DNA of 6,684 nt from DAOVGU01 sp030637775 [NCBI: bacterium] (GTDB lineage Bacteria > Ratteibacteria > UBA8468). Every line of letters begins with the position of its first letter. The stretch's first letter is position 1. The translations under genes were made by a program, and so were the position numbers. Location of the stretch: the NCBI GenBank assembly GCA_030637775.1, contig DAOWFY010000138.1, positions 1 to 6,684 on the forward strand, in the 5' to 3' direction. Below, in pieces: positions 1,992-4,776 of this stretch. A model generated the notes under the pieces. It made no database searches. It was given only the letters and a program-made list of their open reading frames with translations, and was not told the DNA's origin.

Positions 1992-3681
1992 TTATAAGCT
2001 TTTCATTATCGGTTCTAAGGATTTCCCGGCGGCTAAATATTGCCGATAAAGTTTATTATAAACGATGGTTTTTGCCTTCTCCGGGCTGTAAGTTTTGCTA
2101 AAGCCTGGACACATCCTCTTTTGCGCCTCCTCTGTATTTTTATAATATCCCGAGGCGACGGCAGCAAAGATTGATGCTCCTAAAGCACAGGTTTGCTCGG
2201 AAGAGGTAACATTTATTGGCAATCCTAAGATATCGGAGGTAATCTGCATCACATACTCTATCCGGGAAAGTCCACCACAGGCAATGACCGAGTCAAGAAC
2301 GATATTTTCCTCCGCAAATTGCTGCACAATCCTTTTTGCCCCAAAAGCGGTTGACTCTACGATACCGTTATATATCGCTGGGGGTAAAGAACCCAGATTC
2401 ATACCGATTAAAGCGCCACGAAGAGCTTGATCAGCGTAGGGTGTTCGTCGACCATTAAACCAGTCAATGGCTAAAAGACCCGATTCAGCCGGTTTAATAT
2501 TTTTTCCTTCTGCGGTGAGAACCTGATAAATGGTGTTTTTCAATTCCTCTTTTAGTCTCTTCGTCTGAAAAGCGGAGATATTTTTACCAAGGGAAGTTTT
2601 TGGCAGGATATTTACAAAACTCCAAATAATAGTATCTCTGAACCAAGCAAAGTCATCGCCTACTGAGGACTGCCCTGCCTCTAAGCCAATATAGCCAGGC
2701 ACAATCGAGCCATCCACCTGACCGCAGATACCTTTAATCGCCCTCTTTCCCGTCTTTTCATAAGGAGCAATCACCATATCACAGCTGGAAGTGCCAATAA
2801 TTTTACAAAGCACCTTGGGTTTGATGCCGGCTCCCACCGCTCCCATATGGGCATCGAAGGCGCCAACAGCTACCGCCACGGAATGGGAGCCCTAATTTAC
2901 TAGCCCACTCTCGGGTCAAATTTCCTACTTTTCTATCTGAGGTATAGGTGTTCTGATACAGATGAGTTCGGAGACCCTTTAGAAGCGGATCCACATGATT
3001 TAGGAATTCCTGCGATGGTAGCCCATCCCAATTCTTACTCCACATCGCTTTGTGTCCCGCAGCACATCGGCTGCGCATCATCCTTGCCGGATCGGTATTG
3101 CCAGCCAATAGCCCGGTTATCCAGTCACAATGCTCCACCCAGCTATAAACAGATTTTCTTACATTTTTGTCTGTCTTTAATGTATGCAGGATTTTGGAGA
3201 AGAACCACTCCGAGGAGTAAATCCCACCACTATAGCGGGTGTAATCTATCTTCCAGGATTTAGCCTTTTCGTTGATGCAAGAGGCCTCCTCTTTAGCCGT
3301 GTGGTCCTTCCAGATGATAAACATCCCATTGGGATTTTCTTTAAATTGTGGTTTTAGGGCCAAAGGGGTGCCTTTTTTATCAACCGCGGCGATGGTGCTT
3401 CCGGTGGTATCAATCCCGATGCCAATTATCTTACTGCCAATATCTTTCTTTTTAGAGGCATCCCTTAAAAAAACGCCCTTCACAACCTTGATCATTGCCT
3501 CGATGTAGTCGGAAGGGTGTTGCCTGAACTGGTCTATCTTAGGGTCAGAGTAAAGGCCATCTTTCCACCGCGGATAATCTTCAACCGCAGTTCCCACTTC
3601 TTCCCCATTGGCCGGGTCAACAATTAAGGCTCGGACGCTATCGGTTCCAAAGTCAAGCCCTAAAACATAACCTTTTCTCAT
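1992..3681 (-). pseudogene. araB: Ribulokinase (AraB-like FGGY kinase), frameshifted
   Basis: An intact version would phosphorylate L-ribulose to L-ribulose 5-phosphate with ATP in arabinose catabolism. The N-terminal part (from ATG 3681) has the phosphate-1 loop GLDFGTDSVRALIVD, then GIGIDTTGSTI and the ribulokinase-typical NPNGMFIIWKDHTAKEEA. The C-terminal part, in another frame, has VGAFDAHMGAVGAG with the catalytic Asp, IIGTSSCDM, DWFNGRRTPYAD, IACGGLSRIEYVMQ and the Ala/Gly-rich ATP site SEQTCALGASIFAAVASG. Added together the span is about 562 codons, the usual ribulokinase length, so one change of frame is enough to explain the break. It falls between 2880 and 2891, because a TAG at 2892-2894 closes the downstream frame; the region carries one base too many (or two too few). 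As written, the product would stop before the catalytic Asp and be inactive. The start lies only 15 bp after the tRNA and has a weak GAAGAA ribosome site. It may be a pseudogene or an assembly error. Other FGGY sugar kinases are less likely. Confidence 0.85.
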
Positions 3682-3696
3682 TTCTTCATAAAAAAG

Positions 3697-3772
3697 TCGG
3701 GGCGACTGGATTCGAACCAGCGACCTTCTGAACCCCATTCAGACGCGCTAAACCAAACTGCGCTACGCCCCG
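3697..3772 (-). tRNA. tRNA-Pro (anticodon GGG)
   Basis: The minus strand folds as a 76-nt cloverleaf: acceptor stem CGGGGCG with CGCCCCG and discriminator A, D stem GCGC/GCGC, anticodon stem TCTGA/TCAGA around the loop ATGGGGT (anticodon GGG, reading CCC and CCU), a 5-nt variable loop, and the T arm GCTGG-TTCGAAT-CCAGT with one G-U pair. The 3' CCA is not encoded: the next bases are CTTTTTT, so CCA must be added by nucleotidyltransferase. The ribulokinase ATG follows 15 bp later. The inverted-repeat element lies just upstream and may have separated the gene from its original promoter. Confidence 0.95.
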
Positions 3773-3786
3773 AAAACTACCCGGTA

Positions 3787-3813
3787 AAGGGGTCAGGTCT
3801 CAACATTTGACAA
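3787..3813 (+). repeat. Left terminal inverted repeat of the 207-bp element
   Basis: This 27-bp arm exactly matches the reverse complement of 3967-3993. It sits 14 bp from the 5' end of the tRNA-Pro gene. Outside it the flanks agree only loosely (GTAA against GTA, a one-base offset). Confidence 0.9.
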
Positions 3814-3966
3814 TTCTATTTAGATGGAACTATTTTTTAATTTATACAGATGTAAGAGGTAATAGTGAACTAATACAGTTAGGTTTATAGACATTTGCTG
3901 TGAGTAGTTCATAGGAAAATAATCTACGCGCATATTCCTAACTAAAGATAGTATAGTAGCGGAATT

Positions 3967-3993
3967 TTGTCAAATGTTGAGACCTGACCCCTT
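3967..3993 (-). repeat. Right terminal inverted repeat, fused in frame to the methyltransferase gene
   Basis: This 27-bp arm exactly matches the reverse complement of 3787-3813. Read on the minus strand in the methyltransferase frame it encodes KGSGLNI followed by TGA, so the arm supplies the final seven residues and the stop. Confidence 0.9.
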
Positions 3994-4776
3994 ACTGTTC
4001 TTGAATGCTTTGATATACCTCAGGCAGTATTCATCCTTGCCGAGAAGGGCTTCGCTCGCATAGATAAAGGATTGCAATTCTTTATCTAAAGGATCAAGGA
4101 TGGCCGCGTCAAGTCCCGCCTCAATTGCCAAAATGGTAAAGGCTTTGTTGATGGTTTTCCTTTGGGGAAGGCCAAAAGAGATATTAGAGAGTCCGCAAAC
4201 TGTCCTGATTCCGGGAAAACCCGATTTAATCAGTCTGACCGCTTCTAAAAATTCTATACCAAACTTCTGATTGATACTCAGTGGCTGCACTAAAGGGTCA
4301 AGATAGATCTGTTCGTTTTTAATTCCTTGATCGTTCAAGATTTTGACAAGCCGCTTTGCAATTTCTAAACGCTCCTTGGCTGTCTTGGGAATACCCTTAT
4401 CATCCATCGTCAAGGCGATGATTTCTCCTTGGTAATTTTCCAAGATGGGCAAAAATTTTTCTATCTTTTTCTCTTCAGCATTGATGGAATTAATCATCGG
4501 AGGTTTTTTACAGAGTTTTAACCCTTCCTCTAATGCCATTGGGTTAGCCGAATCAAGACAGAGGGGAACTTCGGTTATCCTCTGAACATTCTCAATCAGC
4601 CAGAGGAGACCCTCCTTCTCTGTTTTGCTGGAAAGGCCGGCATTGAGGTCAATGTAGCTGCTGCCGGCGGCTACCTGCTTTTTTGCCTCTTCTTGAATAA
4701 AGGCAGCATCCTTCTTCCCAATGGCAAGGCCAATTGGTTTTCTCGTCGCATTAATCCTTTCTCCGATAATAAGCAT
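3970..4776 (-). CDS. acsE: Methyltetrahydrofolate:corrinoid protein methyltransferase (AcsE-like)
   Basis: This predicted cytoplasmic enzyme moves the methyl group of methyltetrahydrofolate to the cobalt of a corrinoid protein, as in the Wood-Ljungdahl pathway. It is a single pterin-binding TIM barrel of 268 residues. The motifs are GERINATRK (5-13), DLNAG (43-47), LCLDSANP with D75, INSINAEE with N96, TMDDKGIP, YLDPLVQPLS with D160 and CGLSNISFGLP with N198. These correspond almost residue for residue to the pterin-binding D75, N96, D160 and N199 of the Moorella thermoacetica enzyme, as I recall that family, so the barrel should be functional. Residues 262-268 (KGSGLNI) come from the adjacent inverted-repeat element; without them the protein has 261 residues, close to the family length. 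The ATG has no Shine-Dalgarno site, and a promoter ends just before it, so the mRNA is probably leaderless. No corrinoid protein or CO dehydrogenase gene is nearby, so the methyl acceptor is unknown. Confidence 0.88.
   Translation of the reverse strand: MLIIGERINATRKPIGLAIGKKDAAFIQEEAKKQVAAGSSYIDLNAGLSSKTEKEGLLWLIENVQRITEVPLCLDSANPMALEEGLKLCKKPPMINSINAEEKKIEKFLPILENYQGEIIALTMDDKGIPKTAKERLEIAKRLVKILNDQGIKNEQIYLDPLVQPLSINQKFGIEFLEAVRLIKSGFPGIRTVCGLSNISFGLPQRKTINKAFTILAIEAGLDAAILDPLDKELQSFIYASEALLGKDEYCLRYIKAFKNSKGSGLNI

What the first reader, a model, noticed from the sequence alone, without database searches (positions are those of the whole stretch)
3967..3993. Inverted-repeat element supplies the last seven codons and stop of the methyltransferase
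The 27-bp right arm starts exactly at codon 262 of the AcsE-like gene and adds KGSGLNI plus TGA. The barrel and all pterin-binding residues lie upstream, so the insertion is tolerated and has made a new C-terminus. A repeat end that carries an in-frame, polar, short tail and a stop can land near gene ends with little harm, which may help such elements spread.
Basis: partly seen in the sequence, partly recalled or inferred. Interest (0 to 1): 0.62.

Follow-up and report, generated by a model that had tools for sequence, protein, structure and literature searches.

The report
Transposon end supplies a protein's tail
In an uncultured bacterium the end of a small mobile DNA element has become the last six residues and stop codon of a folate-using enzyme, and the same element ends have done this to many other genes, mostly in the reading frame in which the element brings its own stop codon.

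Summary
A perfect 27-bp inverted repeat (3787-3813 / 3967-3993) encloses 153 bp, and its right arm ends the methyltransferase gene with KGSGLNI-TGA. The own genome has 49 such arms; one exact pair flanks a Y1 (HuH) transposase with a DnaA_C-like C-terminus. The element is thus a small non-autonomous relative of the TIRtron/TIRYT elements of Di Nocera 2013 (motif GGGGWSAS): a known kind, new lineage. A relative without the element shows the gene ending one codon after K262 (..FREGKI*), so the insertion replaced one to a few residues. At 29 distinct sites in four related genomes where a gene reads into an arm, 21 use the one frame in which the standard arm gives an immediate stop (about a third expected). 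For another arm type in two other families, 15 of 15 use its two stop-bearing frames (two thirds expected). RuvC, IspD, LigA, AlaRS, and ClpX-like and TyrRS-like genes are among those using stop-bearing frames. Repeats giving stop codons to genes are known for REPs; I found no report of this frame bias for TIR elements. That it helps the elements spread is inferred.

The parts
3787..3813 (+). left arm (TIR) of the element, GGGG outward
   Evidence: 27 nt, 100% complementary to 3967-3993; family of 49 in the genome
3967..3993 (-). right arm (TIR); read outside-in it gives (K)GSGLNI and TGA
3970..3993 (-). codons 262-268 and stop TGA (3972-3970) of the methyltransferase supplied by the arm; K262 probably ancestral
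3814..3966 (.). interior, a mosaic without an ORF of 60 codons: first half shared with the elements L019, L090 and L098; L098 (G001:C257) shares both halves
3893..3966 (+). copy of a second, unrelated ~80-bp repeat family (ATTTGCTGTGAG...GTAGCGGAATTT) nested beside the right arm
   Evidence: (window 3892-3959 matches further places in G001 and G003)
3970..4776 (-). methyltetrahydrofolate:corrinoid/Fe-S protein methyltransferase gene, 268 codons
3777..3779 (-). TAG just beyond the left arm, possible surviving ancestral stop (inferred by comparison with G002 ATATAGTTTCGGGG)
   Evidence: inference
3696..3772 (-). tRNA-Pro(GGG) following the gene; the same tRNA sequence directly follows it in G002, which lacks the element

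Best explanation
The 207-bp element is a non-autonomous (MITE-like) copy of a TIRYT transposon: a Y1/HuH transposase gene with a DnaA_C-like C-terminal domain, flanked by long inverted arms that begin GGGGTCAG. The transposase is inferred to have inserted a copy beside a short A-rich target (..CAGTAA|GGGG) a few codons before the methyltransferase stop. The ribosome now reads K262 into the arm and stops at the TGA whose last base is 22 nt inside it, giving a GSGLNI tail in place of the native one to few residues. The recognised domains are intact, so the insertion was kept. The same happens across the genome: arms settle in the tiny gaps between co-directional genes or in the last codons of a gene. 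Where they enter a gene, the survivors are mainly those in the frame in which the arm itself supplies a stop. Shown: copies, arms around a transposase, empty site, tails on many genes, frame bias, repetition of the bias with another arm type. Inferred: mobilisation by this transposase, the insertion chemistry, and purifying selection as the cause of the bias.
For: Copies: 49 arms, 0 reversed control; within the class only family f1 carries them in number (52, 55, 35 and 2 in G000-G003; 2 single one-mismatch hits elsewhere; 35 genomes). Transposase between two arms of exactly this sequence, Y1_Tnp 58 bits, HYH and YIHLNP visible in the translation, Bac_DnaA_C E 5.8e-7. Empty site in G002; further element-free orthologous sites for arms in rnfC, ispD and a tandem junction (L016a, L026a/L081, L025/L103). 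Frame: sites with a gene reading in are 21 in frame 2, 5 and 3 in the others; of the 21, 20 stop at the codon ending 22 nt inside the arm and one (L035, other inner sequence) 9 nt further on. P is 1.9e-5 against 1/3, 1.8e-4 against the AA-flank null 0.38, 0.016 against the TAA-flank null 0.51. All 29 host ORFs have a Pfam match. Test on another arm type, its stop-bearing frames written down beforehand: 15 of 15 read-ins in stop-bearing frames, 0 in the third frame, all 15 with Pfam matches.
Against: No transposition was observed, and no systematic search for target-site duplications was made. Bac_DnaA_C and NF047646 fall below their curated cut-offs. The genomes are compact (arm-free tandem gaps median 3 nt in G000), so nearness to gene ends by itself needs no special property of the arm. 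In G022, where two frames carry stops, six of seven read-ins still use frame 2, so part of the frame-2 excess may come from insertion preference; against the TAA-flank null the f1 excess is only P 0.016. In the sister species G001 the arm at this very site is decayed and its TGA is gone (..KGSGRNKFKIFGN.. to the contig end), and two more G001 copies read on past the lost stop (L071, L086), so the stop is not strictly needed.
Confidence: 0.83

Rival explanations
1. The frame bias is an insertion effect, not tolerance: the transposase cuts after a short target such as (A)TAA(A), and that motif happens to sit in frame 2 at gene ends, often as or near the stop codon.
For: Gene-end arms are preceded by TAA(A) in 26 of 55 distinct sites against 8 of 52 other arms; some insertions split TA|G and keep a TAG (clusters 49 and 88; L205, L222); G022 favours frame 2 although frame 0 also has a stop (6 to 1).
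Against: AA| falls in frame 2 in only 38% and TAA| in 51% of coding positions, too low for 21 of 29 (P 1.8e-4 and 0.016); G013, with other flanking bases, splits 5 and 3 over its two stop frames and 0 in the third.
Confidence: 0.25
2. The paired arms are kept at gene ends because their RNA hairpin stabilises or terminates the upstream message, as proposed for REPs; the tail is a by-product.
For: Paired arms fold into perfect long hairpins (window z -8.4; L015 z -12.1 and L024 z -12.6); 44 of 50 pairs have exactly one arm at a gene 3' end.
Against: 44 of 144 arms in the fetched f1 loci have no partner found in the fetched stretch, and a lone arm folds little better than shuffles (z -1.3 RNA, -0.01 DNA), yet lone arms give the same tails (RuvC, fumarase, IspD, ROK). 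One gene-end arm per pair is also what tandem gene order gives. In the window no U-run follows the hairpin.
Confidence: 0.2
3. Ordinary chance: any repeat dropped into so compact a genome lies next to a gene end, and some genes simply run into it.
For: Median arm-free tandem gap 3 nt (42 gaps in G000).
Against: Does not predict the frame bias or its repetition with a second arm type.
Confidence: 0.12
4. The tail is native to the methyltransferase and the arm arose from the gene, not from a mobile repeat.
For: None beyond its being in frame.
Against: 27 relatives with a readable gene end lack GSGLNI (of 30 loci; the others are the window itself, G001 with its decayed arm, and L040, read on the wrong strand), and the arm recurs 49 times in the genome.
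Confidence: 0.01

Closest known systems
TIRtron / TIRYT elements (Di Nocera et al. 2013, PMC3733652, passages and section 15 read; subclass 2.1 of Quentin et al. 2018, PMC6006769, passages read, where 291 of 292 RAYT group 1 sequences of Bertels et al. fall)
   Same: Y1 transposase of the REP-associated class with an HTH/DnaA_C-like C-terminus, flanked by long TIRs with the motif GGGGWSAS (here GGGGTCAG), one TIR overlapping the 3' end of the transposase gene, dispersed single and paired TIR copies.
   Different: New arm sequence and lineage. Supply of C-termini and stops to host genes by TIRs, and a frame bias, are not in the passages read.
GTAG REPs / BIMEs / REPINs with RAYTs
   Same: Inverted pairs forming hairpins, near gene 3' ends, a transposase associated with the repeat family. 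[quoted passage not shown]
   Different: No GTAG tag; a lone arm is not a stable palindrome; the stop lies inside the arm after a six-residue tail.
In-frame repeat insertions: Rickettsia palindromic elements (as described in PMC3733652) and enterobacterial/Neisseria repeat units (PMC2759123 and PMC2229807, passages read)
   Same: Small mobile repeats that become protein sequence, also at C-termini beyond the conserved domain.
   Different: The cases in the passages read are mostly longer stretches read as peptide; here the usual outcome is a short tail and immediate stop.

Membership tests
TIRYT / TIRtron (TnpA_REP subclass 2.1) | Y1 HuH transposase gene | tested here: met
   Y1_Tnp 58.1 and 56.8 bits over cut-off 23 in L022 and L036; HYH and YIHLNP visible in the translation
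TIRYT / TIRtron (TnpA_REP subclass 2.1) | C-terminal Bac_DnaA_C or other HTH domain | tested here: met
   Bac_DnaA_C E 5.8e-7 in L022, 1.5e-4 in L036, 3.7e-6 in L067; all below the curated cut-off of 31.5 bits (29.9, 22.1, 27.3)
TIRYT / TIRtron (TnpA_REP subclass 2.1) | gene flanked by long TIRs with GGGGWSAS | tested here: met
   24-nt perfect TIRs starting GGGGTCAG around L130 and L131, 21 nt around L146
TIRYT / TIRtron (TnpA_REP subclass 2.1) | dispersed family of TIR copies in the genome | tested here: met
   49 copies; 50 pairs among 144 arms in G000-G003 loci
TIRYT / TIRtron (TnpA_REP subclass 2.1) | mobilisation of the TIR copies by the transposase | not testable with these tools
   no activity data
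GTAG REP / REPIN | GTAG tag at one end of a self-complementary repeat | tested here: not met
   no GTAG in the arm; lone arm fold z -0.01 as DNA, -1.3 as RNA
REP-associated tyrosine transposase NF047646 | score over the curated cut-off 80 | tested here: not met
   68.0 and 75.2 bits
MITE (class label) | short non-coding element with the TIRs of an autonomous relative | tested here: met
   207 bp, no ORF of 60 codons inside 3814-3966, arms identical over 24 nt to those around the transposase
MITE (class label) | target-site duplication | not tested
   no systematic test was made

The most novel reading that the evidence does not exclude
The ends of TIRYT transposons have been shaped to act as portable gene terminators. 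Each arm carries stop codons both ways: inside-out it closes the transposase (TGACCCC), outside-in it closes any host gene it enters in the favoured frame. The elements can therefore colonise gene-dense genomes by rewriting the C-termini of housekeeping proteins at almost no cost, and arm sequences evolve towards stops in the frames where they land.
Probability: 0.22. Interest if true: 0.75.

Novelty: new variant of a known kind. Interest (0 to 1): 0.5.

Why it matters
It gives a concrete, countable account of how small mobile repeats persist in genomes with almost no spare DNA: the repeat end itself makes the insertion harmless in one or two of three frames. It predicts frame-dependent survival that can be tested on any TIRYT family. 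It also warns annotators that short shared C-terminal tails such as KGSGLNI or TGSTLDS are transposon ends, not protein motifs.

Tried and rejected
Literature for the arm itself: GGGGTCAGGTCT / AGACCTGACCCC anywhere in text gave 5 papers that by title and abstract start concern other subjects (search listing only). 'TIRYT' occurs in 2 papers, both consulted. Wider searches (listings, with passages of PMC2759123 and PMC2229807 then read) gave precedents but nothing seen on frame bias in TIR elements; that absence claim rests only. PMC3116915 (REPINs) was seen in the listing only.

Considered and rejected: a GTAG REP (no tag, no stable lone palindrome); native origin of the tail (relatives lack it); gene-end location as special in itself (compact gaps explain much of it; one 3'-end arm per pair is what tandem order gives). 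A scan of genome contigs with the transposase found one relative only (L067, 92%, MAG CSMAG_1143). Its contig length 11,404 equals that of G001:C157, so G001 is probably that genome; that CSMAG stands for a cold-seep MAG is recalled, from no call.

Rows dropped before counts: clusters 37, 71 and 86 (read-in ORFs with negative or near-zero coding score: phases 2, 1 and 0) were counted as 'other'. Cluster 13 has G000 stop-at and G001 read-in (frame 2, stop lost) and was counted as stop-at. Arms of the divergent GGGGTCAGACC type (L033, L036) fall outside the 12-mer search and are not among the 144. Clusters 82 and 99 are read-throughs inside longer ORFs; without them the phases are 21:4:2. Cluster 96 (Rho, frame 0) has the variant arm GGGGTCAGGTCTTGACA, which gives a stop in frame 0 too (GVRS*), so it also stops in the arm. 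The d=1 cases (TA|G) are not counted as read-in. For the second arm type, 29 of 31 G022 hits and 30 of 30 G013 hits were examined; its 4 hits in G006, 2 in G002 and 1 in G019 were not. For the stop-less type, 19 of 25 G011 hits and 4 of 10 G020 hits were examined; its 2 hits each in G034 and G028 and 1 in G019 were not.

Full report
What is there. The window holds a perfect 27-bp inverted repeat, 3787-3813 and 3967-3993, with 153 bp between the arms. The right arm closes the gene 3970-4776 (-) with K262 GSGLNI and TGA. The gene is a methyltetrahydrofolate:corrinoid/Fe-S protein methyltransferase: NF005719 346.7 bits, residues 1-262 matched; Pterin_bind 6-227. The GSGLNI tail lies outside the matched domains.

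The repeat is a family. In the own genome (1.40 Mb, 83.5% complete) the 24-mer arm occurs 49 times with up to 3 mismatches and never in the reversed control. Of 35 genomes of the class, the arm pattern is abundant in G000 (52), G001 (55) and G002 (35), appears twice in G003, and twice more as single one-mismatch hits. Among the 144 arms of the fetched f1 loci, 100 form 50 head-to-head pairs with GGGG outward and 44 have no partner in the fetched stretch; pairs span 36 to 1231 bp.

The autonomous element. In G000:C119 two such arms enclose a 312-codon Y1 transposase with a C-terminal DnaA_C-like helix-turn-helix. A second transposase, 56% identical, with the arm variant GGGGTCAGACCTCTACATTT, is on C86. 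This is the anatomy of TIRtrons/TIRYTs: Di Nocera 2013 gives the motif GGGGWSAS and moderately abundant TIR families (passages), and Quentin 2018 subclass 2.1 has the DnaA_C-like or HTH C-terminus (passages). Of 12 transposase loci examined here, 9 have a downstream TIR copy that overlaps the transposase stop: in six the stop is the TGA of TGACCCC; in L133 and L139 it is a TAG within the TIR copy (L139 has a broken frame); in L136 the TIR overlaps only the end of a TAA. L137, L138 and L140 were not resolved.

Ancestral end of the methyltransferase. G002 (78% identical, same gene order) has no element here..YIKAFREGKI* TTTCGGGGCGTAGC.., followed directly by tRNA-Pro. Of 30 loci read, 27 relatives have a readable end; their proteins are 261-273 residues long and none ends GSGLNI. 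So the insertion removed one to a few residues and added GSGLNI. Just beyond the left arm the window keeps ..TTTACCGGG TAG TTTTCGGGG.., which may be the old stop (inference). G001 (88% identical) has a decayed arm at the same place (..AACAGCAAGGGGTCAGGGCGCAACAAATTT..) running to the contig end, so the insertion probably predates the two species.

Other genes with the same tail. In the own genome the arm supplies GSGL-type tails to a DksA/TraR-type protein, homocysteine methyltransferase, RnfC, RuvC, a fumarase C-terminal-domain protein, IspD, arginase, a ROK protein and a formyltransferase. For all of these but RnfC, Pfam matches the end of a domain profile (within a few positions) before the tail; for RnfC several Fe-S domains end upstream of it. 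Other frames occur in an epimerase, RnfD, a PMT-like protein and dihydropteroate synthase. In the related genomes GSGL-type tails are on LigA, AlaRS, QueF, RecX, a glycerol-3-phosphate acyltransferase, a poly(A)-polymerase-type protein and others; Rho and an IleRS-like protein have other frames. Further element-free orthologous sites show the displaced native ends: RnfC ..KEQIKVESL* (G001) or ..KEQ* (G002) against ..KTQAKGSGLHS*, and IspD ..ILKMRQP* (G001) against ..LLKIKGSGLNI*.

Frame test. After collapsing orthologous sites, 107 arm sites remain; 55 abut or overlap a gene 3' end and 29 of these are read into. The frames are 21, 5 and 3. Of the 21 in frame 2, 20 stop 22 nt inside the arm and one (L035) 9 nt further. 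Against one third P is 1.9e-5, against the share of AA| positions in that frame (0.38) 1.8e-4, and against that of TAA| (0.51) 0.016. Of the eight off-frame cases, two are read-throughs inside longer ORFs (clusters 82, 99) and one (Rho, cluster 96) meets a stop that its arm variant carries in frame 0.

Test on other arms. The stop-bearing frames of the other arm types were noted before looking. Arms GGGGTCAACTCTTGACnCTTGACA (31 hits in G022, 30 in G013) have stops in frames 0 (GVNS*) and 2 (GSTLDS*/GSTLDT*) but not 1. Of 59 arms examined, 15 are read into by a gene: 6 (G022) and 3 (G013) in frame 2, 1 and 5 in frame 0, none in frame 1; two thirds to the 15th power is 0.0023 (own arithmetic). 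All 15 have Pfam matches, among them ClpX-like, TyrRS-like, TrpA, HU-type, QueF and TatD proteins. Arms without any stop (GGGGTCAGGTCTTGCTTTTTGCAT) give 3 read-ins among 19 G011 arms, one per frame, and none among 4 in G020; the numbers are too small to say more.

What limits this. The genomes are gene-dense (arm-free tandem gaps median 3 nt in G000, 42 gaps), so closeness to gene ends is largely forced. In G022 frame 2 is preferred although frame 0 also stops, so target choice may contribute. The f1 flank at gene ends is A-rich with TAA(A) in 26 of 55 (8 of 52 at other arms), whereas 25 of 29 G022 flanks end in AC. In G001 three copies in frame 2 (this site, L071, L086) have lost the stop and read on. 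Gene calls rest on ORFs, a simple codon score and Pfam. Mobility was not observed.

Mechanism, with what is shown and inferred. Shown: the copies, arms around a transposase, empty sites, tails, the frame bias in two arm families. Inferred: single-strand HuH insertion beside a short target; loss of most out-of-frame insertions by selection; benefit to the element. Known before: in two REP families REPs lie close to (mostly under 20 bp for convergent pairs) gene 3' ends, and GTAG ends often give TAG stops (PMC3733652 section 15); repeat units extend C-termini (PMC2759123 and PMC2229807 passages). What I did not find in print is the supply of stops and tails by TIRYT arms and its frame bias.

Noticed in passing
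L015 1514-1582 against L087 (G001), and L021/L068/L119, L029/L108, L030/L069/L111, L012/L083: At the same site in different species the arms are nearly identical but the interior is exactly inverted (L015/L087) or largely different (the others). G002 arms are mostly CCACA where G000 and G001 mostly have CAACA, as if arms evolve in concert within a genome.
   Followed up: partly
L128 (G001:C87:5703-12312): Where G000 has a 130-bp element (L020), G001 has two arms about 6.6 kb apart enclosing genes for a FAD oxidoreductase, a sulfatase, a GH20-type hydrolase and others: a gene cassette between TIRs, or a deletion in G000.
   Followed up: partly
L114 1518 (G002) and L033 1355-1378 (G000): An arm lies in frame, in the stop-less frame 1, inside a GcvT-like ORF some 65-100 residues before the GCV_T domain. 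In G002 one 931-codon frame also takes in SHMT. In G003 residues 407-928 form one open frame on a contig with no arm found.
   Followed up: partly
L016 1050 and 2000, L023 1538, L031 1567, L096, L102, L105: A single arm is the whole junction between two tandem genes, with the next ATG 26-29 nt from the first G of GGGG. The arm at the rnfD site is identical in three species while its flanks diverge.
   Followed up: partly
window 3893-3966; L157-L170; L098: A second ~80-bp repeat family, found at several places in G003 which has only two GGGGTCAG arms, is nested inside the window element; the element L098 of G001 has the same composite.
   Followed up: partly
L130-L135, L146, L136, L139: In different TIRYT types of this class the downstream TIR overlaps the transposase stop codon, usually as TGACCCC, so the conserved GGGGTCA motif includes the complement of that stop.
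   Followed up: partly
window 1992-2879 and 2803-3738 (-): The ribulokinase-like FGGY gene is split into two overlapping ORFs in different frames (frameshift or sequencing error); the N-terminal ORF is also called from inside the tRNA region.
   Followed up: no
arms facing gene starts, e.g. L022 1542: In 10 of 39 paired arms with a called gene starting on that side, the longest ORF starts at an ATG inside the arm, 18 nt from its edge (MLRPDP..). Whether that start is used is unknown.
   Followed up: no
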